A stretch of 64,000 nucleotides of DNA, taken from the NCBI GenBank assembly GCA_016786765.1, contig JAEUUZ010000019.1, positions 1 to 64,000 of the forward strand. The letters are read 5' to 3'. Below are positions 5,791-17,324 of this stretch, piece after piece. A model generated the notes under the pieces. The model saw nothing but the letters and a program-made list of their open reading frames with translations, was not told the DNA's origin and searched no databases. The first letter of the stretch is position 1. Each line of letters begins with the position of its first letter. Both the position numbers and the translations under genes were made by a program. The stretch is from Chitinophagales bacterium (lineage in GTDB: Bacteria; Bacteroidota; Bacteroidia; Chitinophagales; LD1).

Positions 5791-5831
5791 GCTTAATTTT
5801 TTTGGGCGTGTAACCGGCTGTACGTTGCAAT

Positions 5832-5855
5832 CTTTTCCAATAAGAATTGGAAAAG
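5832..5855 (+). terminator. Hairpin downstream of gldH
   Basis: TTTTCCAAT and ATTGGAAAA form a perfect 9-bp stem around AAGA, extended by one C-G pair. There is only a short T-run after it, so terminator function is uncertain; it may act from either side. Confidence 0.4.
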
Positions 5856-5930
5856 GATTTCCACTTCCATCCGCACGCGGCATTGAGGTGCATTGGAAAT
5901 ATATTTTCTATTCGTCATTCTTTGCTACCG

Positions 5931-6029
5931 CAAGCGTCTCGCTTGTGGAGTTACTATCATCAAAAAAAACGACTAGAAACTTACAAAGTCAACGCTAGTA
6001 TTTTATACTGCTCACAAGCGGGACGCTTG
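5931..6029. repeat. Pair of CAAGCG-NNN-CGCTTG hairpins
   Basis: CAAGCG-TCT-CGCTTG (5931-5945) and CAAGCG-GGA-CGCTTG (6015-6029) are two small perfect palindromes 84 bp apart. Flanking bases (GTGGAG after the first, CTCA before the second) make the pair partly inverted to each other. The second lies 16 bp after the stop of the large minus-strand gene. They look like a dispersed REP-type element at the island edge. Confidence 0.5.
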
Positions 6030-6044
6030 GGGCAGCGTAGGACA

Positions 6045-9000
6045 TTAGGTACAGAGCGAATCTACCTCCTGAATTACTTCATTTATAGTTGGAATTTCTG
6101 CCCTCTTTGAATAAAATTCTCTGTCAAGATTTAGTTGCCAATAGTTCAAAACTTGAATCATTTTTTTCTTCGACTTATTCTTTTCAAGGAACTCGTTTAT
6201 ATGTTTTTTTGTTTCATTGAAATTGACTTGGCTACTTAAAGCATATTCCCAAATTAAATCAAGTATATCCCGACTATATTCATACCCTATACTCTTTTGT
6301 ATAAACTTCTTTGAAAATGAATTTTTAAACAATTCAAAAGTATTGTGTAAAACTTGGGATGGGGAAAATTTTACTAAACTGTAATTAAGTCTTAGACCAT
6401 TAGGATATTGCATTCTAGTCTTTATCCACTTAAATAAAAATTCTATAGCTAACACTTCACCAATTGGAAGTAGATACTTTATAGCAATTAGTTTATCTTC
6501 TTCTTTCATATTGATTTTGAAACAATTAAGAAGATGTAAATCTACATATTCCTTAAAATCAATATAAATCAATTCAATTAAATCCCACCAATATTCTGTT
6601 TCATTACAATCCAATGAAAGGACATAGTCTTTTAATTCTTCCTTATCTCCATCTAATTCAATATAAATTTTTGTTGCTTTAATTATATCAAAATCATGTA
6701 AAGACATTGATCTGATTGAATTTAGTATGAATGGAGTGGATTCTGTAATTTGTAATTTTTGACATAGGCCAATATGAGTTGCACATACATAACTAACAAG
6801 ATTGCCTAGTCTTAAATTATTAATAACTCGCTGTTTAACTAAATCCGCATCTGAAATCTTCTCTAAAATTTTATCACTTAATGAAACATTGTACTCGTCA
6901 TTATTCATTCTCATACTTAGTCCGGAAAAATCAAAACTCAACATATCTAGCATCACGACATCTTGAATTGAAAATTCAAATCTTTTCCATATGAATGCTA
7001 CTATATTTTCCTTGTTCCTGAATTGAATTGTTCTATCCGTATTTTCCCATATTGCATTTTTAAAATCGCAATCATCTATATTCTGTTTACACCAATCAAC
7101 AATAAATTTACTATGCCAATCTCCTATTTCAGACTTGTTTTCTATAAATTTCAAAATAGAACTCAAAACATATAATTGCCATTTAATTTCATCATTTATT
7201 GTTTCAACAAAATCATCGTAGTTAAGTGCTTTTGTCTTTTCTGACATTTTCCACAACTTATCTATTACAATTCCATACTTAAATGAAATAAAGCTTTCGT
7301 GAAATGTAGTTACAAGTTTCCTTATATCATCGTAAGAAAGTGAGGTTTTGTCATACAACTTAAAAATGGCTTTTACCTCACTTAAAAAGTCCTCCTTATT
7401 CATAAGCAAAGCTAGATCCTTTTTATACCTTTCTTCTCGAATAATTTTGTAGTTGGGCATATGGATATAAGTAAATCTTCCATTAGATATTTTGTTTATA
7501 TCGTTATAAAAGGTGTCATGTATTTCTCCTGGGTTTAAGTTCGATCTCAAGTAAAAGATATTTTCATCTTTTATTTCCCCTTTTTTGAATTGCTCAATAA
7601 TATAATCGATACATTCCAAATCTGCTATTGAGCCTAAAATGGAATATTTTTGAAAAGATTCATTTTTTGTTTTTTGAATTATTTTAAATGCATCTAGTGT
7701 GGTGCTAGTCTCATTGTAAAATTGTATTAAAAGAGTTTGATATTTGTTGGCATGAAGTTCGCATGAAAACAAATGAATCTCAATTATTTTTTCCAAAATC
7801 CCACAACCAGGCTCATATGCCTTAATACAGTTTCCAATAAAGGTGCTATCAATTATCTCATTCTCATAAGGGTCTTTATGAATATCTTCTAAGTGTTTCA
7901 AAACAAAAATTAAGACCTTGTTTATCGCTTGTTTGCTAGTACATTTTCCTATTGCTATTGTTTGTTGGTAGTCAACATATCTTATCTTTTTCTTCTCGTA
8001 CTCATCTTTCCTTACTGCAGTAGTTGAAAGAATAAAATCAACATTTTCATTGCATAAATTCAATTTACTTAACTGCATAAGCAATTCGTTCCTAATCTCG
8101 TTTGTATTTGTATTTGGACAAATATTTATTATTCTATCTATATCTTTTTGCCCCCTATCTTTGATTCTAAAAAAACATTGTATAGCTTTTCCCTGGATAT
8201 AAACTGTATGTTCTTTAGATTGAATAATATTTATTAAAACAATTTCAAATTCGTCTTCTTTTGAATAGAATTTAAGGCAAAGTGATAGTGTAGAAAGAAT
8301 ATTCTCTAAATGTTCTTCAGATTGATAGGAGTAAAATTCGTTTAACAGGTATTCGATAAAAATCTTTTCGTTGCCACTAAACTCTACTATATCTTTATAG
8401 CTAAGTGAAGCATTTTCTAAATACATATTCCTAGATCCATAAAAATTAAAAATTGATTTTATAATCTTTAATCTCACATGACTAGGAATTATCTCTCTTT
8501 CAAATCTTACAATAATCTCAGGCTTGATTTCAATTAACCAATTCAACAATTCTAAAAATTCCGTTTCGTTCCTTTGTCCTAATATACCCATTAAAAAAGT
8601 AAGTGTATTTAGCCATTTAGGCTTTACTATTGTGTAATCAGGTTTAAAAGCTATTGATTTCTTTATTATTCCTGTCAAGTGATATGATAAAACTGTGGCT
8701 GCTAAATATTCTTGATAATTGTTGTGTATAAACTTAATGCCTCCTTTTTCATGGTTATTGAAATATACTAATGGCGAGTGTTTTAAAAGTTCTCGTTGTT
8801 CTGGGTTAACTATTATCTTTCTAAAGTCGCTTTTAGTGAGATAATTAACACCCAACTCCACCATGGAAAGAGATAATCTTTCCAAGGTTTTCCTCATTGT
8901 AATTTCATAATCTAAATCACTAACATTTTTTACTTTATGTAGTTTTTTATTTTCCTCAATTTTTTTTTGAATTATTTTCTCAAAAGCCTCACTTCTGTTT

Positions 9001-10289
9001 TTTGGAAAATTTGATTCCCCTATTTGTAAGAATAGAGTCGTGAATTCTACTAGATTGAATGGGTTTGTAAATAGTTGATAAATTTTATTTTTCTTGGCAA
9101 TTCGCTCAAAAGTTTTGGATTTAACTTTATCCATTCTGCTATTTAAATATCTGCTTATTGCATCTTCACTAAAATCCTCTATATAGAAACACTTATAATC
9201 ATCTAGTTGAGCATTATAAAAATTGCTTCGCATTGAAAGTAATACTGTTGATTTCTTGTATTTTTTTGAAAAGAGATTTAGTTTTCCTACCGCAGTTTCG
9301 ATTTTATTGGTTGGAATTTCATCAAATCCATCAAGTATAATAAGTCTTTTCCTTTCTGCTATATTCATCCAAAGAGGCTCAAATGCAGAAATATAATTCT
9401 CAAAATCTTGTTCTGAATAATCTTTCAGAGAACATACAATCGGATAGTATATCTCTTGCTCATTGCAAAAAGAATGGGCAATATTATTTAATTCTGCTGT
9501 TTTACCTGTACCAGCAGCACCTAGTAAAACTATTTTTTGGGACTCATTTTCCTTAATTAAATCAAAAAGGAAGATTGTTTCTTCTTTTCTCCAAAAATCA
9601 TTGTTGTTTTCATTGAGATTGTTTTCACTTTTCACTTTTCTTTCTATGAAATGGTCAAGCTTTTTATACTGAATTTTTGGTGGTGGGATTATTTGACTTT
9701 TGTCCCATTCTGAAAATAGACTTTCATCACAAATATGTTGAGCCCATTCTTTTCCAAAAATTTCTGCTACAATAGCAGGATACCTTTTTAGTTTTTGATT
9801 CAATTTATCCGTATCCCAAACATCAAAATCGACACCTTTTTCATGATATGAATCTCGAATTTTTATGAATTCTGAAGTAAGTTTTTTATCGCTTCTTAAG
9901 TCTACTTTTATTGCCATTATAAATTCTTTGGCAATTTGTGCAAATTGACCATTATCAAATTCTTTAGTAGCCATTTTAAATTTACTAACAGAATATTTCT
10001 CTACTTTTTTACATTGAATAAATATTTTATTTAGTGAATTTGCTGGATTTATTAAATCTTTTTTAATGCAAAAAACATCAATTCCATGTTGTTTATTCCC
10101 TTGTCTAAGATAAAGTCTTGCATCATCACACTCCTCACTAGCTATCAATACACATAATCTCTCAAATGTTTCCCAACGAATTTGTTTATCAAACGGAAGC
10201 TCATTATGGTCTTTATGTGGAATAGAAAAAAGTTGTGGAACGAAATCCCCTTCTAAATAATTTTCAACCCCAATTTGAATATCCTCCAT
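6045..10289 (-). CDS. Mrr-like nuclease-NACHT (STAND) ATPase, probable anti-phage protein
   Basis: A 1414-residue protein in three parts. Residues 35-185 look like a PD-(D/E)xK nuclease of the Mrr type: Glu43 in the first helix, GID with Asp71, and IQCKK with Gln92 and Lys94 (the QxK variant common in Mrr proteins). Residues 250-450 are a NACHT-type P-loop ATPase: Walker A GAAGTGKT at 257-264, Walker B RLIILDGFDEIP at 315-326, and an arginine-bearing strand (LLSMRSNF) near 350. The remaining 900 or so residues are Ile/Lys/Glu-rich and helical, as in the sensor arms of STAND proteins. This architecture matches nuclease-effector NLR-like defence proteins (Avs and bNACHT groups), in which phage sensing triggers oligomerisation and DNA cleavage. 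The specific phage target cannot be read. Base composition is far more AT-rich than the flanking genes, which suggests transfer. It is transcribed alone. Confidence 0.85.
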   Translation of the reverse strand: MEDIQIGVENYLEGDFVPQLFSIPHKDHNELPFDKQIRWETFERLCVLIASEECDDARLYLRQGNKQHGIDVFCIKKDLINPANSLNKIFIQCKKVEKYSVSKFKMATKEFDNGQFAQIAKEFIMAIKVDLRSDKKLTSEFIKIRDSYHEKGVDFDVWDTDKLNQKLKRYPAIVAEIFGKEWAQHICDESLFSEWDKSQIIPPPKIQYKKLDHFIERKVKSENNLNENNNDFWRKEETIFLFDLIKENESQKIVLLGAAGTGKTAELNNIAHSFCNEQEIYYPIVCSLKDYSEQDFENYISAFEPLWMNIAERKRLIILDGFDEIPTNKIETAVGKLNLFSKKYKKSTVLLSMRSNFYNAQLDDYKCFYIEDFSEDAISRYLNSRMDKVKSKTFERIAKKNKIYQLFTNPFNLVEFTTLFLQIGESNFPKNRSEAFEKIIQKKIEENKKLHKVKNVSDLDYEITMRKTLERLSLSMVELGVNYLTKSDFRKIIVNPEQRELLKHSPLVYFNNHEKGGIKFIHNNYQEYLAATVLSYHLTGIIKKSIAFKPDYTIVKPKWLNTLTFLMGILGQRNETEFLELLNWLIEIKPEIIVRFEREIIPSHVRLKIIKSIFNFYGSRNMYLENASLSYKDIVEFSGNEKIFIEYLLNEFYSYQSEEHLENILSTLSLCLKFYSKEDEFEIVLINIIQSKEHTVYIQGKAIQCFFRIKDRGQKDIDRIINICPNTNTNEIRNELLMQLSKLNLCNENVDFILSTTAVRKDEYEKKKIRYVDYQQTIAIGKCTSKQAINKVLIFVLKHLEDIHKDPYENEIIDSTFIGNCIKAYEPGCGILEKIIEIHLFSCELHANKYQTLLIQFYNETSTTLDAFKIIQKTKNESFQKYSILGSIADLECIDYIIEQFKKGEIKDENIFYLRSNLNPGEIHDTFYNDINKISNGRFTYIHMPNYKIIREERYKKDLALLMNKEDFLSEVKAIFKLYDKTSLSYDDIRKLVTTFHESFISFKYGIVIDKLWKMSEKTKALNYDDFVETINDEIKWQLYVLSSILKFIENKSEIGDWHSKFIVDWCKQNIDDCDFKNAIWENTDRTIQFRNKENIVAFIWKRFEFSIQDVVMLDMLSFDFSGLSMRMNNDEYNVSLSDKILEKISDADLVKQRVINNLRLGNLVSYVCATHIGLCQKLQITESTPFILNSIRSMSLHDFDIIKATKIYIELDGDKEELKDYVLSLDCNETEYWWDLIELIYIDFKEYVDLHLLNCFKINMKEEDKLIAIKYLLPIGEVLAIEFLFKWIKTRMQYPNGLRLNYSLVKFSPSQVLHNTFELFKNSFSKKFIQKSIGYEYSRDILDLIWEYALSSQVNFNETKKHINEFLEKNKSKKKMIQVLNYWQLNLDREFYSKRAEIPTINEVIQEVDSLCT

Positions 10290-10776
10290 TGTTTTTTTAT
10301 TTTTTATCCCGTGTTATGTGTCATCACAAATCACTCAAAAAGTGGTTAATAATTGCTCCCCTAAACCTCACTAATTCCCCCCACAATACCAACCGTGGTT
10401 TTACGCAATTTACTCCATTGGTTGGTATTCCGGCACCAACCAAAACCCACCCCAAACCTAACCCGGTTTACAAAAAATATGAACCGAGCCTATCGAAAAC
10501 CTAAACTCACCCACTCTAAACCCAAGCCGTTTAACCTAAAATATGAACCTACCCCACCCCAAACATGAACTTACCCTATCGAAAACATAAACCGACCCTA
10601 CCTGGAGGGTGGGGGTAGCCACCTTTCGGGTAGGGTCGGTTGTCCTATTTGCACCCCTAAGTTTACCTTTTGGGTAGGGTATACCCACCCTTTAGGGTGG
10701 TACCCCCCACCCCCAGGAGTGGGGGGGGTATACCTTTTGCCTACCCTCAGTTCATGTTTTGGGTAGGTAAACCCAT
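10290..10776. repeat. Gene-free, strand-asymmetric, hairpin-rich block
   Basis: No credible gene. From about 10444 to 10600 the + strand is C/A-rich with very few G; from about 10603 to 10760 it is G-rich with runs of up to eight G. A 34-bp direct repeat occurs at 10479-10512 and 10565-10598 (28 of 34 identical). ACCGACCCTACC (10591-10602) and its exact complement (10629-10640) form a 12-bp stem. CCACCCT/AGGGTGG (10685-10700) and CCCCCCAC/GTGGGGGG (10703-10726) form further stems. GGGTAGGGT recurs. The block could fold as one large RNA or DNA structure; its function is unknown. Confidence 0.7.
10410..10443. repeat. 34-bp palindrome-bearing repeat, copy 1
   Basis: Contains the stem TTGGTTGGT / ACCAACCAA (10418-10426 and 10435-10443). 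It matches 17291-17324 at 29 of 34 positions in direct orientation, including CTCC before the stem. The two copies bracket the DNA that carries the channel gene and the four-gene operon. Confidence 0.6.
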
Positions 10777-11262
10777 TTATGGAGTGGTCGTTTCAGCAGG
10801 TGAGCCACCTTGGTTCGCAAATCTCGATTTTAACAAATCGTAAATGGTATCGGCACCTGCTACACCTGCATTCGCTGCCGCCTCAAAATTGCGGTAGGCT
10901 GCCAATGCCGATACATAGGCTTCGCTTCCGGCTAATAATTGCGTATCGCTAATGCGTTCAGCTAATTGGTTAACAATTGTGCTTAGCTCATCGAGCTGTG
11001 CAAAGAGGCTCATATCCTTTTGCATTTCTGCCACATTAAAATAGGCAGGCAATAAACCCGGGTTGTTCACCATCGAATTAATGGCATCCTCGGTGAAGGC
11101 TTTGTTGGATACATTGATTTTAGGCAATGCGCTCCGTTCTTCTACCGTTAAGCCTACTAAAAAAGGCATATTGGTTTGAATGGTTTGGATGGCTGTTTTT
11201 ACAGCAGTGATTTGTGCCGCAGTCATAGTAATACTGAGGCGATTGACATTAATATTGGCCAT
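10777..11262 (-). CDS. Conserved Bacteroidota protein of unknown function
   Basis: A 161-residue protein without signal peptide or membrane segment. It is predicted mostly helical: MANINVNRLSITMTAAQITAVKTAI at the N-terminus, then VGLTVEERSALPKINV, and LLAGSEAYVSALAAYRNFEAAAN near residues 115-140. I recognise the general pattern (Asn/Ile-rich start, 'LT.EER..LPK', 'GSEAY.AAL.FY') from small Bacteroidota proteins that have no assigned function, so I give no role. Its base composition is closer to the backbone than that of the AT-rich genes around it. The repeat block lies directly after its stop and the CGTAGAAATACG array lies 234-313 bp before its start. Confidence 0.75.
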   Translation of the reverse strand: MANINVNRLSITMTAAQITAVKTAIQTIQTNMPFLVGLTVEERSALPKINVSNKAFTEDAINSMVNNPGLLPAYFNVAEMQKDMSLFAQLDELSTIVNQLAERISDTQLLAGSEAYVSALAAYRNFEAAANAGVAGADTIYDLLKSRFANQGGSPAETTTP

Positions 11263-11650
11263 AGTAATTGGTTATTATTGCCTACTCTTTGATCCCCTTT
11301 TCGGCATCCGGGGTTATTTGTTTTGAAATAGGGTGAAGGCAAACAGGACGCTTACCTACGTGATATAAACCTAAAATGGGTTTATTTAAAAACCAAGCAA
11401 GTTTGGGTTGGGGGTAGGGTAACGCATAGTAGCAAAAACAGACTCTAATCGTTTATGGCATGAGCTTACAGTCATTTCCTTTGTTCTTGCATTTTCCGTA
11501 GAAATACGCAAAAATACCGTAGAAATACGCAAAGTGCTGTTGCGTAGAAATACGGTAAAATTGCGTAGAAATACGGTTGGAATTGTGAGGGGGAATAGGG
11601 ATGTTTGACTAATCTTTAAACAAAACTGTTAACATCTCAAGTTACAACTA
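11263..11650. other. Intergenic regulatory region
   Basis: 388 bp between divergent genes. It holds a GGGTTGGGGGTAGGGT stretch near 11405-11421, similar to the G-rich motifs in the block at 10600-10760, and four CGTAGAAATACG boxes at 11497-11575. No open frame or RNA gene was recognised. Confidence 0.6.
11496..11576. promoter_or_regulatory. Array of four CGTAGAAATACG dyad boxes
   Basis: Identical 12-mers start at 11497, 11518, 11543 and 11564 (spacings 21, 25 and 21 bp). CGTA and TACG are complementary arms around GAAA. The first two copies are flanked by C on both sides and the last two by G on both sides, so the array is itself two matched pairs. The 21-bp pair spacing equals two helical turns, which suits binding of a dimeric regulator on one DNA face. 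The last box ends 74 bp before the channel gene. Confidence 0.65.
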
Positions 11651-12994
11651 ATGGAAAAATCTATTGTAAAAAAATATGTTAATGATTACTTTTTTAATGA
11701 TTATACACCATTGATAATCGCATTTTTTTTTCATTTTACTTTATATAGATTCATAGGTCATGACATTATTTATAAAGAGTTTTTCGCATGCGTAGCTGTA
11801 GTTCAAGCAGTGATTTTTGAAGTATCGTTGCTTAATAAATCAGATAAAACAGCATATTACGGAAAAGGTGATTTTAAATACTTCATTATCCAAATATTCA
11901 TTTCAATATTTTTCATAATAGTTACTTTTGGCGTTGACTATTATCTGCTTTTTATTGAAAATCAAAATTCTTTTAAGGTAAATACAGTAATAACAGAAAA
12001 ACTATTTGTATCTAGTATAAATGCCTCTTTGTTATTTGATTTCTTTTATTTCAGTATTACAACTTTTTCCACTACAGGATATGGCGATATGCAGCCATTT
12101 TCTAATCTTGCAAGATTGTTTTGTGTTATACAAATTACAATTTCATTCTTTGTTGCATACTATGTGTTAAATTATTTTTCCGACAACTTGGAGAATTCAA
12201 AGAAACTAATTAATGCATTACTTAATACTAAAGAAAGTATTATCGAGAAAAGCAATGATGACAAAAAAAATGAAAATTCTATAAGAGGTTTACTTCCAGC
12301 TTTTATTACAATCTTGGTTTTAACTTTACTCTTTCACAGCTTAAGTTTATTTCTAACGCAAACTCAATTTGTAGTAAAGCTTGAAAAGGTAATTTACTTT
12401 TCAATATTGATAATTGCACTTTATGGAGTTATTGATTTTATCTATAGACTTATAAGGATGTCCATAAAAGATATGAAAACTTTTTTGCCATTACATGTTT
12501 CAAGTAGACAACTTTTAGTTTTATATTTTTCAAATGTATTTATTCTCGGTGTTTCGTATTTTCTGTTCGGGAAATGCATTGGCAACTATTTAGCAGTTCT
12601 TTGTTCAATCGCAATTCCCGTTATATATTATTATTCAATCAACTTAAGACTTTTTGATAGGAGGGCAAAAATTAATTTAATATTGATTGTTATGCTATCA
12701 CTTATTCCCTATATCATATCATATGCAGTTGTAATGTTCATCGTTTCATTTTATAATCCTGGGGCATTTCATCTACAATCTCCAAATCCTGAATATTCAT
12801 TTTTGCAAATTTCAGACTTTCTATATTATTCGGTAGTTACTTTTTCAACTACTGGGTATGGCGATATTTATCCTGTATCGACATTGAGTAAATTTTTAAT
12901 CTCAATAAAACTATTTTCCAATCTCTTTATAATTTTTTATTTCGTTTCCAATATTCTAAATGTAAAGGCAAAAACAACTAAAAGCTTATTGTAG
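11651..12994 (+). CDS. Membrane protein with two K+-channel pore signatures
   Basis: A 447-residue polytopic membrane protein with about ten hydrophobic segments. Two copies of the exact string FSTTGYGD occur at residues 139-146 and 398-405; TTGYGD is the potassium-channel selectivity filter. Each is preceded by an aromatic pore helix (FFYFSITT, LYYSVVT) and followed by a hydrophobic helix (155-178 and 412-436). This is a tandem-pore layout, as in eukaryotic K2P/TPK proteins. Bacterial channels normally have one pore per chain. No RCK/TrkA-N or cyclic-nucleotide domain is visible; residues 180-210 form a short polar linker. It presumably conducts K+ as a dimer. The gene is AT-rich like the rest of the island, and its link to neighbouring genes is unknown. 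Confidence 0.85.
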   Translation: MEKSIVKKYVNDYFFNDYTPLIIAFFFHFTLYRFIGHDIIYKEFFACVAVVQAVIFEVSLLNKSDKTAYYGKGDFKYFIIQIFISIFFIIVTFGVDYYLLFIENQNSFKVNTVITEKLFVSSINASLLFDFFYFSITTFSTTGYGDMQPFSNLARLFCVIQITISFFVAYYVLNYFSDNLENSKKLINALLNTKESIIEKSNDDKKNENSIRGLLPAFITILVLTLLFHSLSLFLTQTQFVVKLEKVIYFSILIIALYGVIDFIYRLIRMSIKDMKTFLPLHVSSRQLLVLYFSNVFILGVSYFLFGKCIGNYLAVLCSIAIPVIYYYSINLRLFDRRAKINLILIVMLSLIPYIISYAVVMFIVSFYNPGAFHLQSPNPEYSFLQISDFLYYSVVTFSTTGYGDIYPVSTLSKFLISIKLFSNLFIIFYFVSNILNVKAKTTKSLL

Positions 12995-13306
12995 GAAAAC
13001 AACTAAAACGATTAAGAGTCTTAGTTGTCTAGCCTTTCAAATTTTGATATTTTAATGCTATCGGGCTCGTAATTGGAAAATTTTGATAATAAACTAGAAG
13101 TGTATAAACATGAACTTTGACTATTAGATAAATAACAATAGGATGTTTTTAACCGATGTACTAAAGAAAATATTTTAGCTTAACGAAAACATACAGTTAT
13201 TTAATGAAAAAGATATAACTCAAAACAATAATAAAATCTAGAGTTTTAAAACCTACAAATTGTTAATTACCATACAGCTTTAATTTTAAAATCAATAAAA
13301 CCAACT
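12995..13306. other. AT-rich intergenic gap with a weak hairpin
   Basis: 312 bp. CAACTAA and TTAGTTG (about 13000-13029) can pair around a 14-nt loop just after the channel gene, a possible weak terminator. The rest is AT-rich without open frames; it must contain the promoter of the four-gene operon, but no convincing TAnnTTTG box was seen. Confidence 0.4.
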
Positions 13307-14455
13307 ATGACAAATAACGAAACCCTCCAAAATCAGGAATCTAATAATTCTAAAATCACTTATGAGCAATTTGGACGGGAGTCTGCTCAAAGTGCTAATG
13401 GAAACTCTGACCAACTAAAAAGTGCATTAAGTATTATTTTCAATGAAATTGTTAGAAAATCTACTCTTGATGAAAACCAAAAAAAAGTAAAAGTACAAAG
13501 CTTAAATAATGAAAAAGTTAAGTTAGATACCGAGATAATTGGTGTTGCTACATTAATAAAAACAAAAGATGTTGAACTTCAGAATAAGCAAAAGGAATTA
13601 GACGAAATTGAACAAGGTAAAGGTCATGTTGATTTAATTCCATTAGTGATATCCTCTCTTATCACTATACTTCTTACTTTTTTTCTTTGGATTTTTTATT
13701 CTGGCAGTAGCTATGGAGCCCTAAATGAGAAGATATTCAGAAAACAAACAAATGGATTATCTGCAATTTTTGAAGCTCTTGGTCATCTTATTAGTTATGG
13801 AAGTGGAATAGAAAAATCTTTTTATACTTTATTCCCGATACTATTTATTGGATTAGGATTTCTTATCCATGATGGCTTAGTAAAAAAGAACTATTTGAAA
13901 ACTGTATTCATACTCACATTTACTTTTTTAATAGATATAATACTTGGTTACTTAATTTCTAGAAATTTGTACAACTCCTCCCCTGGTATACGATTTACTA
14001 ACCCTTGGCAAATGAATTTTATTCTTTTAGATCCTAACTTTTATTTGATATTGTTTTGTGGATTTGCAGGTTATATAATTTGGGGTTTTTTATTGAACTC
14101 ATCGCTTCAAAAATTCAATGATATGCAACCTACTGTTAGGCAAAAGCAAGTTTTAAGAGATAAGGGTGAAATAGAGATTGAAATAACTAAGTTAAATGGG
14201 CAAAAGGTAGCATTAGAAAATAGCAGAAAAGAAGTTCAACAAGAAATTGAGGATTTAGGTAAGGGAGTTGTATTTATTGATGTATCAAACCTTCGAGCTC
14301 TTGTTGGCTATTTTATGCAAGGTTGGGGCGCGTGGCTTCAGTTAATGAAACAGTCTCAAGCAACAGAACTTATTTCCGAATGTAATAAAATAGCTGACGA
14401 CTGGTTAGCCCAAATTATCATATCAAAAACAAATTCTGTAATCTTCAAACAATAG
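13307..14455 (+). CDS. Four-helix membrane protein with two coiled coils (operon gene 1)
   Basis: A 382-residue protein of no recognised family. Residues 1-50 are polar. A coiled coil (about 52-105, rich in K, E, Q and L) leads into the first membrane helix (109-131). Three more helices are at about 173-189, 197-216 and 244-264. A second coiled coil (about 272-318) and a C-terminal amphipathic region follow (VGYFMQGWGAWLQLM near 332-347). With four helices both coils lie on the same side, presumably the cytoplasm. The general plan (inner-membrane helices with long coils, next to an OmpA-domain gene) recalls MotA/ZorA-type proteins, but no MotA/ExbB sequence signature is visible. It is the first of four co-directional genes; its stop overlaps or abuts the next start. 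Confidence 0.75.
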   Translation: MTNNETLQNQESNNSKITYEQFGRESAQSANGNSDQLKSALSIIFNEIVRKSTLDENQKKVKVQSLNNEKVKLDTEIIGVATLIKTKDVELQNKQKELDEIEQGKGHVDLIPLVISSLITILLTFFLWIFYSGSSYGALNEKIFRKQTNGLSAIFEALGHLISYGSGIEKSFYTLFPILFIGLGFLIHDGLVKKNYLKTVFILTFTFLIDIILGYLISRNLYNSSPGIRFTNPWQMNFILLDPNFYLILFCGFAGYIIWGFLLNSSLQKFNDMQPTVRQKQVLRDKGEIEIEITKLNGQKVALENSRKEVQQEIEDLGKGVVFIDVSNLRALVGYFMQGWGAWLQLMKQSQATELISECNKIADDWLAQIIISKTNSVIFKQ

Positions 14456-14457
14456 TG

Positions 14458-15852
14458 ATGACTAATACAAAAAAGCTACTATTAATATTTTTCATTTTCA
14501 TTATTGTTTTTGGTGTCTTTCTACGAGTTGTATTTTTTTCGGATGACCCTAAAAGGCTAGTTTATGACAACCTGAATAATATTGAAAATGTTGATTCTAT
14601 AATTGCTTACTATAAATCATTAAGTAAAGATTTTCAGGAGCAAGAACCAATTAAAGAACGACTTATAGAAAGACTGCGACACAAAAAGATTAGTAATGAT
14701 CAAATACAAGAGGTTTCGAATCTGTTAAACAATCCAATTTATCTAAATGTAGTAATAGTCCCAGATCTTTCAAAAAGAATAATCGATACTATCAATAATC
14801 CTAATCAAAGTGAGTATGATAGAAAGTTAATTTTGAAAGCTTATAAAGAATTTATCGGTTTTATAATAAGCCAAAACAACTATGAGATTAATGATAAATT
14901 GAGTTTTGATTTTACTGATCCGAGACAAACTAACGGTAAGTTTAATAAACTGTCAGACAAACTATCTATAGATTTTTCTAAGCCCAATCAAAATTTTACT
15001 GTTAACGATTTTAATGTTAAAGAAAAAGAAATTGAAAATGCTATAACTGAAATTTACCAAATCGCTTCACAACCTAAAAATACTATTGGCAATAATTTTA
15101 TTGAATACTTTAATACTTTTTTTTCTAGTAAGCTTCAAAAAACAACCCTTGAAAAGCGATGGGTTAATAAGTTAATTGTTTTAACTGATGGATACTTAGA
15201 GGTTACAAACTCATCAGGCGATATAATCGACTATACTCCAGTAACAAAAAGTCCTGATGATTACCCTATTCCAATAGTAGACAAAGATTATTCAAATTGC
15301 GATATCTTAATTTGTCAAGTAAATATGCGCAAAAATGAAAGAAGCAAGTCTGAGTCTCTAAAAAGATATTGGTATAATTGGCTTTCTTCAATGAGATTTC
15401 GAAATATTAATGATGATAATTGGTGGTCTAAAAGATATGAGGATCCTAATGTTGCAGAAAATGAACTAGTCGATTTTTTTCAAGGTGAGGTTAACACTCC
15501 AAATACAATAAAGAATGTAGAGTCTTTATCAAGCTATAAAAATTCGACCCCAGCTTCAGATATACAAAAGCCAACTTCTAACGATAGAAATGCTCACAAG
15601 AATGTTTCACAAAATATTCCAAAGAAAACTACGATTTCAATTCCTCATAAAAAAAATGAGGTACTTGATACTTGCTCAAAAGCGTATGATAAAATTTATG
15701 AATTATCCATCAAAGATGACTTGAGCAAAGAAGAGTTATTGACCCTAATTAAGCTACAAACTGAATTTTTAAATCTAGAATGTAGCTCTGAATATAAAGA
15801 GGTAATTAAAAAAAGTAAGCAAACTATTTCTGAAATGTTAAAATCTAAATAA
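14458..15852 (+). CDS. Membrane-anchored protein with degenerate vWA-like domain (operon gene 2)
   Basis: The ATG at 14458 gives 464 residues; a GTG three bases earlier overlaps the previous stop and is also possible. The N-terminal helix (about 7-28) is a signal anchor. Residues about 95-330 resemble a von Willebrand A domain. A first strand ends in NVVIVPDLSKR (DxS near residue 104-106, but without the second MIDAS serine), a later strand reads NKLIVLTDGYLEV (TDG near 244), and DILICQVNMR is a further strand. The Asp/Ser positions fit a weakened metal-binding site. The C-terminal region is linker-like and then helical with two cysteines (DTCSKAY, LECSSEY). It probably faces the periplasm. 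TAA and the next ATG overlap by one base, so translation of gene 3 is coupled. Confidence 0.72.
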   Translation: MTNTKKLLLIFFIFIIVFGVFLRVVFFSDDPKRLVYDNLNNIENVDSIIAYYKSLSKDFQEQEPIKERLIERLRHKKISNDQIQEVSNLLNNPIYLNVVIVPDLSKRIIDTINNPNQSEYDRKLILKAYKEFIGFIISQNNYEINDKLSFDFTDPRQTNGKFNKLSDKLSIDFSKPNQNFTVNDFNVKEKEIENAITEIYQIASQPKNTIGNNFIEYFNTFFSSKLQKTTLEKRWVNKLIVLTDGYLEVTNSSGDIIDYTPVTKSPDDYPIPIVDKDYSNCDILICQVNMRKNERSKSESLKRYWYNWLSSMRFRNINDDNWWSKRYEDPNVAENELVDFFQGEVNTPNTIKNVESLSSYKNSTPASDIQKPTSNDRNAHKNVSQNIPKKTTISIPHKKNEVLDTCSKAYDKIYELSIKDDLSKEELLTLIKLQTEFLNLECSSEYKEVIKKSKQTISEMLKSK

Positions 15853-16670
15853 TGAAAATCATATCTCAAAATATTGTTGCAATTCTTGCCTTACTTTTAT
15901 TGTCAAATTGTATTTCTCAAAAAGATTTAAATGAGCAACAAGCAGAGAATGAAAGAACTCGAATTGCTTTAGAAGATAATATTGTGATGTTAAAAAAGTT
16001 GTTAAACAAATCAACACAATCATCAGAAACAACTTCCACTATTAATAATGCAATAGACGACATTTCTACAAAAGTCGAACAAGCATATAAGGAAATCGAC
16101 AAGCAAACAGGGAAAAAGACAAAAACGCGATTGAATAATTTGCGGTTAAAAACGGAGATTATTTCACAGGCAATGCAGGAACTTAAAGTGGTTCAAATTG
16201 CTGTTGAAAAAGTTGTATCTGAAAAACTAGAATCCGATTTATCGTTTGATGTAGGTAAATCTACGTTGAAGGAAAGTGGAAAAAAGGAAATTGATGACAT
16301 GGTCCAAAACATTAGGATGCAAATTCAGTTTTGGAATGATTTTCCCAAAAATGAACAACCAAAGAAATATGCCGATAAAGTAAAGAAGATAGCTGTTAAT
16401 ATTACAGGTTATGCTGACTTACAAGGAAGTACTAACACTGAACAAAGAATAAAATATAATTTGGAGTTATCAAATGAAAGAGCAAATGCTGTTCGTTCAT
16501 ACTTTGAGTTCAGATTAACTGAAATTGCTAAAACTGAAAAAATAGAGATCAAGTTGAAGGCTGTCGGAAAAGGTGAGGAACCTCCAGTTGGGTTAAAAAA
16601 TACAACAAAAATAGATAACCCTGAACGCAGAATTTGTGTCATTACATTAGGTGTTATCCCTACATTTTAA
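15852..16670 (+). CDS. OmpA-domain lipoprotein (operon gene 3)
   Basis: A 272-residue protein with a lipoprotein-type signal (ILALLLLSNC, lipidated Cys20; Asn at -1 is slightly unusual). Residues 25-130 are helical/coiled coil. The C-terminal half is an OmpA-like peptidoglycan-binding domain: DLSFDVGKSTLKESGKKEID, VNITGYADLQGS, then YNLELSNERANAVRSYFEF and a final ERRICV segment. The Asp of GYAD and the Arg of the LSxxRA motif, which bind diaminopimelate in this family, are present. An insertion (about 30 residues with KNEQPKKYADK) lies between the first and second strands. It would anchor the operon's complex to the cell wall from the outer membrane or inner leaflet. Confidence 0.88.
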   Translation: MKIISQNIVAILALLLLSNCISQKDLNEQQAENERTRIALEDNIVMLKKLLNKSTQSSETTSTINNAIDDISTKVEQAYKEIDKQTGKKTKTRLNNLRLKTEIISQAMQELKVVQIAVEKVVSEKLESDLSFDVGKSTLKESGKKEIDDMVQNIRMQIQFWNDFPKNEQPKKYADKVKKIAVNITGYADLQGSTNTEQRIKYNLELSNERANAVRSYFEFRLTEIAKTEKIEIKLKAVGKGEEPPVGLKNTTKIDNPERRICVITLGVIPTF

Positions 16671-16676
16671 AATTTA

Positions 16677-17201
16677 ATGAGCAGGTATTTAGTTCTTTTT
16701 TTTGTTTTATGTTCCTGTAATTTGGGAACGAACCCCAAAAATGATGCAGATAAGATTACTGGCAAGGTAGTTAAGATTTTTGATGGAGACACCTTTGAAA
16801 TACTTATGTCTGACAATACTACGCTCAAAGTGAGAATGTCGGGCATTGATGCACCTGAAAAGGGAATGCCTTTTTATAAAGTTGCCAAAAACTATTTAGG
16901 TACACTTTGTTTTCAAAACGAAGTTATGATTGTAACCAAAGGAAAGGACCGATATAATCGGACTATTGCTCAATCGTATTTGCCAGATGGTAGGGAGTTA
17001 GGGGAAGAAATGGTTGCTGCTGGCTATGCTTGGCATTTTGTAAAGTATTCAAATGATAAGAAATTAGATAGTATTGAGAATGTTGCCCGTATAGAAAAGA
17101 GAGGGTTATGGGCGGAATCCAATCCTATGGCTCCATGGGAAAATCGAAAATTACATCGCCAAGGAGTTTCTACTAAAGATAGTTTTGACTTAAAGAATTA
17201 A
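16677..17201 (+). CDS. Staphylococcal-nuclease-like lipoprotein (operon gene 4)
   Basis: A 174-residue protein. The first 14 residues form a lipoprotein signal ending in LCSC. The rest is a complete SNase/TNase domain: KVVKIFDGDTFEI, VRMSGIDAPEKGMPFY, KGKDRYNRTIAQSYLPDG, EEMVAAGYAWHFVKYS and RIEKRGLWAESNPMAPWENR. These carry the usual calcium-binding aspartates, the catalytic glutamate and both arginines. The enzyme would cut DNA or RNA outside the cytoplasm. It starts 6 bp after the OmpA gene and closes the operon. Single thermonuclease genes are common, but its position as the last cistron here suggests it is the effector of the complex (inference). Confidence 0.9.
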   Translation: MSRYLVLFFVLCSCNLGTNPKNDADKITGKVVKIFDGDTFEILMSDNTTLKVRMSGIDAPEKGMPFYKVAKNYLGTLCFQNEVMIVTKGKDRYNRTIAQSYLPDGRELGEEMVAAGYAWHFVKYSNDKKLDSIENVARIEKRGLWAESNPMAPWENRKLHRQGVSTKDSFDLKN

Positions 17202-17290
17202 CATTCTTGCACCCATCGCTCTTGTTACCACTTACCGTCCATTCTCTGTAAATAGTTTCCTTTTGTACGGGCACGAACCCAGGAAAAATG

Positions 17291-17324
17291 TTTCTCCTTT
17301 GGTTGGTGTTACGCCACCAACCAA
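17291..17324. repeat. 34-bp palindrome-bearing repeat, copy 2
   Basis: TTGGTTGGTG / CACCAACCAA form a perfect 10-bp stem around TTACGC. It matches 10410-10443 in direct orientation (29 of 34). Confidence 0.6.

What the first reader, a model, noticed from the sequence alone, without database searches (positions are those of the whole stretch)
11651..12994. Bacterial tandem-pore potassium-channel-like protein
Two identical FSTTGYGD filter strings in one 447-residue chain give a two-pore-per-chain layout known mainly from eukaryotic K2P/TPK channels. No regulatory RCK domain is present. It sits between a defence-like gene and an envelope operon, so ion flux as a defence output is worth considering.
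Basis: partly seen in the sequence, partly recalled or inferred. Interest (0 to 1): 0.62.

Follow-up and report, generated by a model that had tools for sequence, protein, structure and literature searches.

The report
Two-pore potassium channel in a bacterium
A Bacteroidota genome carries an apparently acquired gene for a membrane protein with two potassium-channel pores in one chain, a layout best known from animals and plants, and it sits behind a DNA signature that in this genome often precedes antiviral genes.

Summary
The 447-residue ORF at 11651-12994 (+) carries two complete K+ channel pore domains (Pfam Ion_trans_2 twice), each with FSTTGYGD; three codons differ, all synonymously. It is not a Trk/Ktr transporter and has no RCK domain. 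Each half matches a family of ~185-residue bacterial proteins with three helices, a pore loop and one helix (4TM-1P). Two such units, joined by an extra helix pair, give a predicted 10TM-2P chain. Two chains would supply the four pore loops of one K+ pore (inferred, not modelled). No full-length relative was found: among 395 class genomes searched with the family profile, only the own genome has two matches in one ORF. The gene lies in an AT-rich cassette that starts 44 nt after a ~50-bp element present seven times in 1.07 Mb of this genome. Four of the seven slots carry strong anti-phage matches (Pycsar, SIR2-HerA, SIR2-pAgo, a Pycsar-type cyclase), one a NACHT gene, one a phosphoesterase, one this channel. 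A defence role is thus plausible but unproven: AT-rich islands without the element also carry defence genes (4 of 18), and nothing shows conductance. I call it a new variant of a known kind.

The parts
11651..12994 (+). tandem-pore K+ channel gene, 447 aa, predicted 10TM-2P
11651..12235 (+). first 4TM-1P unit (residues 1-195)
   Evidence: family profile 79.4 bits; AF2 block pLDDT 73-94 over residues 71-200 except 58 at 111-120; residues 74-179 match Kir2.2 at Z 12.4, rmsd 1.5 over 91 residues
12065..12088 (+). first selectivity filter FSTTGYGD (residues 139-146)
12131..12133 (+). Gln161 in the inner helix; the single-pore relatives have Glu in 30 of 34 rows and Gln in 4
12248..12466 (+). linker with an extra helix pair (TM5-TM6, residues 200-272), no match to the family
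   Evidence: 2.4 bits; 121 of 300 shuffles reach it; helices
12467..12991 (+). second 4TM-1P unit (residues 273-447)
   Evidence: family profile 80.8 bits; AF2 block pLDDT 66-90 over 281-440; residues 292-442 match AKT1 at Z 10.8, rmsd 2.1 over 108 residues
12842..12865 (+). second selectivity filter FSTTGYGD (residues 398-405)
12908..12910 (+). Lys420, at the same inner-helix position as Gln161
11558..11607 (+). boundary element before the channel cassette; 7 copies in 1.07 Mb of this genome
11497..11575 (+). four CGTAGAAATACG copies, partly inside the boundary element
10361..10411 (-). inverted copy of the boundary element, 72 nt before the NACHT start codon
10408..11607 (.). 1.2-kb unit with the 161-aa gene, 86.6% identical over 1205 bp to a second copy on contig C41 that precedes a Pycsar cassette
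10777..11262 (-). 161-aa protein of unknown function; 93% identical copy on C41
6045..10289 (-). NACHT protein, 1414 aa, cargo of the left cassette
   Evidence: Pfam NACHT 29.1 bits; NCBIfam EruA 39.1 bits, far under its cut-off of 1000
13307..16670 (+). three-gene module after the channel: coiled-coil membrane protein, 465-aa protein that looks vWA-like by eye, OmpA-domain lipoprotein
   Evidence: same layout in another genome without a channel
16677..17201 (+). staphylococcal-nuclease-like protein, last gene of the AT-rich stretch

Best explanation
The gene encodes a K+-selective channel that carries two pore loops per chain. Shown: two full pore domains with canonical filters; each half is homologous to a bacterial family of single-pore proteins with three helices, pore loop, one helix; the halves are joined by an extra helix pair. 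Inferred: both ends lie in the cytoplasm and two chains assemble so that the four filters line one pore, as in K2P channels, in place of the four-subunit assembly expected of the single-pore relatives. Inferred: having neither voltage sensor nor ligand domain, it is leaky or gated at the filter or by the membrane, and opening it moves K+ down its gradient and shifts membrane potential. Shown: it is cargo of an AT-rich cassette that starts at an element shared with anti-phage cassettes in the same genome. Inferred, about 0.35: its use is phage defence or a related stress response; otherwise it serves K+ or potential homeostasis.
For: Two Ion_trans_2 matches over cut-off. An 11-sequence single-pore profile hits the chain twice, 74.3 and 55.7 bits; a 34-sequence one gives 79.4 and 80.8 bits, and the parts before the pores alone 19.6 and 8.9 bits, with 0 of 300 shuffles reaching either. 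AF2 gives the same order of elements in both halves; the 50 listed VIA-align rows are K+ channels or pore relatives for the second half, and all but one (an entry titled only 'transmembrane protein') for the first. Filters identical in protein with three synonymous changes, while the halves are 23% identical overall. Lys+Arg 23 in inner loops against 4 in outer loops for the 10TM layout. The own genome shows no single-pore partner of this family: its third match to the family profile is a 305-aa frame elsewhere. Cassette context.
Against: No conductance data and no dimer model. Whole-chain AF2 is weak (mean pLDDT 62.4 and 60.0, pTM 0.47 and 0.49), and each half is confident only when the alignment covers it. 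No Foldseek match at E 0.001 or better for either model. The pre-pore match of the second half is near the shuffle maximum (8.9 against 8.2). No full-length relative, so no conservation of the tandem form can be shown. The conserved inner-helix Glu is Gln and Lys here, which may change or impair conduction. Whether the halves arose by duplication or by fusion is unresolved (p-AU 0.416, very long branches). The boundary element's link to defence is not significant by the strict count (4 of 7 against 4 of 18, p 0.12), the tests on the two sides were not alike, and PADLOC does not list the channel.
Confidence: 0.68

Rival explanations
1. An ordinary K+ or osmotic homeostasis channel that was acquired by chance in this stretch; the cassette context says nothing about its use.
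For: Single-pore relatives are spread through Bacteroidota, Paenibacillus and Actinobacteria; the two neighbourhoods of single-pore relatives that I listed (L002, L155) hold ordinary genes; AT-rich islands of this genome also carry plain genes such as a thermolysin-type peptidase and a fatty-acid desaturase.
Against: No full-length relative in 396 genomes of its order, so it is not a conserved housekeeping gene; low GC, 27-28% against 39% in the sampled contigs; it lies in the slot right behind the repeated element.
Confidence: 0.45
2. A diverged, non-conducting or regulatory pore protein, or one decaying by drift, whose filters persist by inertia.
For: Gln161 and Lys420 replace a conserved Glu; very long branches of both halves; no full-length relatives.
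Against: Both filters identical in protein with three synonymous codon changes; the Y, S, T, F, G, G, D and P positions around the filter are kept in both halves; the ORF is open.
Confidence: 0.2
3. A Trk/Ktr/HKT-type K+ transporter (four pore loops in one chain with single filter glycines; recalled).
For: Several pore loops in one chain.
Against: PF02386 has no match in the genome; Pfam gives Ion_trans_2 only; two full TTGYGD filters, not four single-glycine ones.
Confidence: 0.02
4. The channel is the membrane effector of the neighbouring NACHT protein.
For: Both cassettes start at copies of the same element and lie back to back.
Against: Opposite strands with a 161-aa gene between; each has its own copy of the element, so they look like two separate acquisitions; elsewhere single slots hold whole systems of their own.
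Confidence: 0.07

Closest known systems
Bacterial single-pore 4TM-1P Ion_trans_2 proteins of ~185 aa (e.g. in Flagellimonas, Arenibacter, Aquimarina)
   Same: each half matches over the unit, including the helices before the pore; same filter region
   Different: one pore per chain against two; inner-helix Glu in 30 of 34 rows against Gln and Lys here; no TM5-TM6 linker
K2P / TPK two-pore-domain K+ channels of eukaryotes
   Same: two pore domains in one chain, so a dimer would give four filters (inferred)
   Different: 10 predicted TM helices against 4 (recalled for K2P); only about 21 residues between the helix before the first pore and its pore helix, so no room for the K2P cap (cap size recalled); both filters identical
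Fungal TOK (8TM-2P) and animal/plant TPC (two 6TM units); both recalled, not from a call
   Same: two pore units in one chain
   Different: helix count and arrangement differ; no voltage-sensor helix with regularly spaced Arg seen here by reading
KCO-like two-pore sequences of photosynthetic bacteria mentioned in PMC8619664
   Same: bacterial, two PF07885 pores
   Different: that paper reports varied filters (second pore GxxD) in those; no sequence comparison was made here
Plant AKT1/GORK and Kir2.2 pore domains (solved structures)
   Same: fold of the pore part: Z 12.4, rmsd 1.5 over 91 residues (Kir2.2); Z 10.8, rmsd 2.1 over 108 residues (AKT1)
   Different: no cytoplasmic ligand domain here; one pore per chain in those

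Membership tests
K+ channel pore superfamily (Pfam Ion_trans_2, PF07885) | profile match over the curated cut-off | tested here: met
   72.2 bits, two stretches, cut-off 22.5; second half alone 39.1
K+ channel pore superfamily (Pfam Ion_trans_2, PF07885) | T-x-G-Y-G-D filter after a pore helix, helices on both sides | tested here: met
   two FSTTGYGD; pore helices 125-139 and 387-399, 125-139 and 383-398
K+ channel pore superfamily (Pfam Ion_trans_2, PF07885) | K+ conductance | not testable with these tools
   needs expression and recording
K2P/TPK | two pore domains in one chain | tested here: met
K2P/TPK | 4TM-2P topology | tested here: not met
   10 helices of membrane length, Lys+Arg 23 inside and 4 outside; prediction, not experiment
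K2P/TPK | extracellular cap between first helix and first pore (K2P) | tested here: not met
   residues 104-124 only, no helix there; cap size recalled
K2P/TPK | functional dimer | not testable with these tools
   no dimer prediction offered
Trk/Ktr/HKT | TrkH profile match (PF02386) | tested here: not met
   0 matches in the own genome; the control rang in 11 of 14 genomes
Bacterial 4TM-1P family | homology along the whole unit, not the pore alone | tested here: met
   pre-pore parts 19.6 and 8.9 bits against shuffle maxima 9.5 and 8.2, 0 of 300 each; weak for the second half
Bacterial 4TM-1P family | a single pore per chain | tested here: not met
   two pores
Ligand-gated prokaryotic K+ channels (RCK type) | RCK/TrkA_N domain | tested here: not met
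   Pfam at E 0.1 lists Ion_trans_2 only
Known anti-phage systems (PADLOC) | match of the channel to a defence profile | tested here: not met
   0 families at E 0.01
Zorya (for the OmpA gene downstream) | ZorB match and a MotA-like ZorA beside it | tested here: inconclusive
   ZorB 36 bits, ZorB2 NCBIfam 20.6 bits of 400 needed; no MotA match in the neighbouring genes

The most novel reading that the evidence does not exclude
A bacterial tandem-pore K+ channel of a new 10TM-2P layout acts as an anti-phage effector: it is carried in a cassette introduced by a lineage-specific ~50-bp element that acts as the landing site or common leader for defence cassettes, and on infection it opens and lets K+ out, collapsing membrane potential.
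Probability: 0.15. Interest if true: 0.85.

Novelty: new variant of a known kind. Interest (0 to 1): 0.5.

Why it matters
Prokaryotic K+ channels are normally single-pore subunits that form tetramers; the step to two pores per chain is usually studied in eukaryotes (recalled). A bacterial chain built from two units of a still existing single-pore family gives a case in which that step can be tested: concatenation, two-fold pores and the freedom to vary one filter. If the cassette link holds, K+ flux through a true selective channel would be a new output of bacterial immunity, and the boundary element would be a way to find further defence genes in this lineage.

Tried and rejected
Full-length relatives: none in genome contigs by a scan with the protein (294 pattern stretches, none a relative), in 60 relatives, 395 phylum and 396 order genomes (the sets overlap), in plasmids, phages or viral contigs (104 stretches, none). 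With the family profile in 395 class genomes, 81 had a match and only the own genome had two in one ORF (at most 8 candidates scored per genome). With PF07885 in 247 phylum genomes, 182 had a match; I read the listed rows (about 150, more not listed) by eye and saw no pair in one ORF.

One near-hit (L003) lies opposite a receptor gene of TonB type (named by eye) with stops inside and was dropped as chance. The first alignment for structure prediction (A3) mixed the two halves and was not used; A5 and A6 replace it.

Duplication against fusion: trees with 49 and 42 rows do not put the halves together, but long branches meet; one clade is not rejected. A pair of adjacent single-pore paralogues in G898 shows that two-gene arrangements exist, but they are distant from this gene.

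Sigma-70 and Bacteroidota-type promoter patterns gave nothing above chance near the gene (the second pattern is recalled). NACHT N-terminus: no Pfam family at E 10, so my impression of a nuclease-like motif there stays an impression. Boundary element in other genomes: 4 single hits with one mismatch in 168 other genomes, none in the one congeneric genome searched, so it is lineage-specific as far as seen. Papers: the searches gave no description of this protein or of such a boundary element in the held open-access library; PMC8619664 was read in passages and one section, PMC12485921 and PMC6377628 in passages, the rest as listings only.

Control for the element: eight contigs (1.07 of 3.62 Mb) chosen because they hold the CGTAGAAATACG repeat, so the sample is not random. 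24 AT-rich islands, 6 at a boundary; the seventh boundary (C14) lies in DNA of about 35% GC. For islands without it I tested the longest ORF of each of 18 (17 together with one second ORF, one); for boundary slots I tested several ORFs, which favours the boundary side. By longest ORF alone the boundary side would be lower (C41 and C37 would drop out).

Full report
The ORF and its pores. The ORF at 11651-12994 (+) is open and 447 aa long. FSTTGYGD occurs at residues 139 and 398. The two DNA stretches differ at three codons, all synonymous, while the two halves of the protein are 23% identical. That pattern fits selection on both filters and excludes an assembly echo. Pfam-A gives Ion_trans_2 alone, in two stretches, well over its cut-off, and the second half passes on its own. 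TrkH has no match in the whole genome. NCBIfam gives only a weak match to a voltage-gated channel model over 34 residues (29.9 of 425 bits). The solved-structure hits shown by sequence are ion channels, nearly all named as K+ channels.

What the halves are. Searches with the protein returned short single-pore proteins aligned to either half. They form a family of about 180-240 residues with helices before the pore; the genome-contig scan found them in many Flavobacteriaceae, other Bacteroidota, Paenibacillus and Actinobacteria. A profile of 11 of them hits the chain twice, residues 28-176 and 275-442, at 74.3 and 55.7 bits. A profile of 34 (chosen by me from the 80 kept loci) gives 79.4 and 80.8 bits; the parts before the pore alone give 19.6 and 8.9 bits, and no shuffle of 300 reaches either, though the second is close to the shuffle maximum of 8.2. 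The middle stretch 200-275 does not match (121 of 300 shuffles reach its score). So the chain is unit, helix pair, unit.

Topology. Both predicted models show the same helix order; I count ten membrane helices and two pore helices. With both ends inside, inner loops hold 23 Lys/Arg and outer loops 4. I ran two predictions, with relatives aligned to the first half (A5) or to the second (A6; coverage), because I found no one alignment that served both. Each gave confident values only for the covered half, and mean pLDDT was 62.4 and 60.0. The fold of each half is that of a K+ channel pore: Kir2.2 Z 12.4, rmsd 1.5 over 91 residues for the first; AKT1 Z 10.8, rmsd 2.1 over 108 for the second. The top row is an entry titled only 'transmembrane protein' (9ma5, Z 12.5). 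Foldseek E-values were above 0.001 for both. A dimer was not modelled.

A difference from the relatives. In the 34 single-pore rows an inner-helix position is Glu in 30 and Gln in 4; here it is Gln161 in the first half and Lys420 in the second. What this does to gating is unknown; by counting from the filter it lies about one turn above the usual hinge (recalled), not clearly in the pore.

How rare. In 395 class genomes the family profile matched 81, and only the own genome had two matches in one ORF. One other genome (G898) had two matches close together, in a pair of adjacent separate genes. PF07885 itself matched 182 of 247 phylum genomes, and I saw no second pair among the rows listed. The literature is not empty: PMC8619664 (passages and section 2.2) states that a single pore is usual for Archaea and Bacteria and mentions first and second pores of KCO-like proteins of photosynthetic bacteria. 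So bacterial two-pore chains are rare, not unheard of. I found none with this topology in the searches named.

Surroundings. GC falls to 27-30% over 6000-10000 and 11500-16000 and is mostly 42-45% between and outside. The 1.2-kb middle part, 10408-11607, with a 161-aa gene, is 86.6% identical over 1205 bp to a stretch of contig C41; the C41 protein is 93% identical, and a third, 48% identical copy lies on C6. After that unit the C41 copy carries a Pycsar cyclase (646 bits) and PycTM. The shared right end is an element with consensus TTGCGTAGAAATACGGTTGGTATTGTGGGG, aligned over seven loci.

The boundary element. A profile of it has exactly seven hits at E 5.3e-9 or better in 1.07 Mb, the next at 0.12 (the profile was built from these seven, so the count says only that no eighth is near). 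The first gene starts 44-319 nt later in all seven. The cargoes are: this channel; the NACHT protein (inverted copy); PycC + PycTM + a histidine kinase (C41); an AIG2-like protein + SIR2-pAgo class I (1195 bits; C60); DUF4365 + SIR2 (382 bits) + HerA (527 bits) (C10); two cyclases of Pycsar type (121.5 and 42.5 bits; C37); a metallophosphoesterase (C14). Loci with the palindrome but without the tail (C14:49k, C26, C34) sit by ordinary genes by reading. Against this, of 18 AT-rich islands without the element the longest ORF is a defence match in 4. Fisher's exact test gives p 0.12 for 4 of 7, and 0.03 if the NACHT gene is counted; the two sides were not tested alike. In 168 other genomes the core pattern gave four single hits. 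So the element marks cassette starts in this lineage, and the defence link is suggestive.

The genes after the channel. The module 13307-16670 (coiled-coil membrane protein, 465-aa protein, OmpA lipoprotein) has a counterpart of the same layout in G309, beside a gene that reads like a DNA-polymerase clamp and without a channel. Only the first gene was matched by sequence search (25% identity, E 6.9e-9); the other two were matched by eye. The module is therefore not a fixed partner of the channel.

Verdict. The channel reading is well supported by sequence and fold, the two-chain pore is inferred, and the use is open. I put K+ channel with two pores per chain, acting as a dimer, at 0.68, and a defence or stress role at about 0.35 within that.

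Noticed in passing
window 11558-11607 (+), 10361-10411 (-); L204, L206, L209, L210, L211: A ~50-bp element (CGTAGAAATACGGTTGGTATTGTGGGG core) stands 44-319 nt before the first gene of seven cassettes, several with anti-phage genes; possible landing site or common leader.
   Followed up: partly
window 10408-11607 and G000:C41 about 81.8-83.0 kb: A 1.2-kb unit with a 161-aa gene of unknown function is present twice (86.6% identical DNA), each time before a cassette.
   Followed up: partly
window 17290-17324 and 10409-10446; C60, C41, C37, C14: A hairpin-like repeat (TTGGTTGGTGTT...CACCAACCAA) has 13 matching pieces in 1.07 Mb, among them at the right ends of the channel and SIR2-pAgo cassettes; its first half resembles part of the boundary element.
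   Followed up: partly
window 5794-5908: A ~90-115-bp repeat with 14 matching pieces in 1.07 Mb lies at the end of the NACHT cassette.
   Followed up: no
window 13307-16670; L183 6845-10202: A three-gene module (coiled-coil membrane protein, protein that looks vWA-like, OmpA-domain lipoprotein with weak ZorB matches) recurs in a distant genome; function unknown.
   Followed up: partly
L155 3452-4111 and 4293-4949: Two adjacent paralogous single-pore channel genes, a possible forerunner layout of a fused two-pore gene.
   Followed up: partly
L021 850-1695: A 282-residue single-pore relative with extra helices before the pore; it joined the first half of the channel in one tree, perhaps by long-branch attraction.
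   Followed up: no
L025 (455-aa frame): A single pore domain at the end of a long soluble repeat-like region, an unusual fusion.
   Followed up: no
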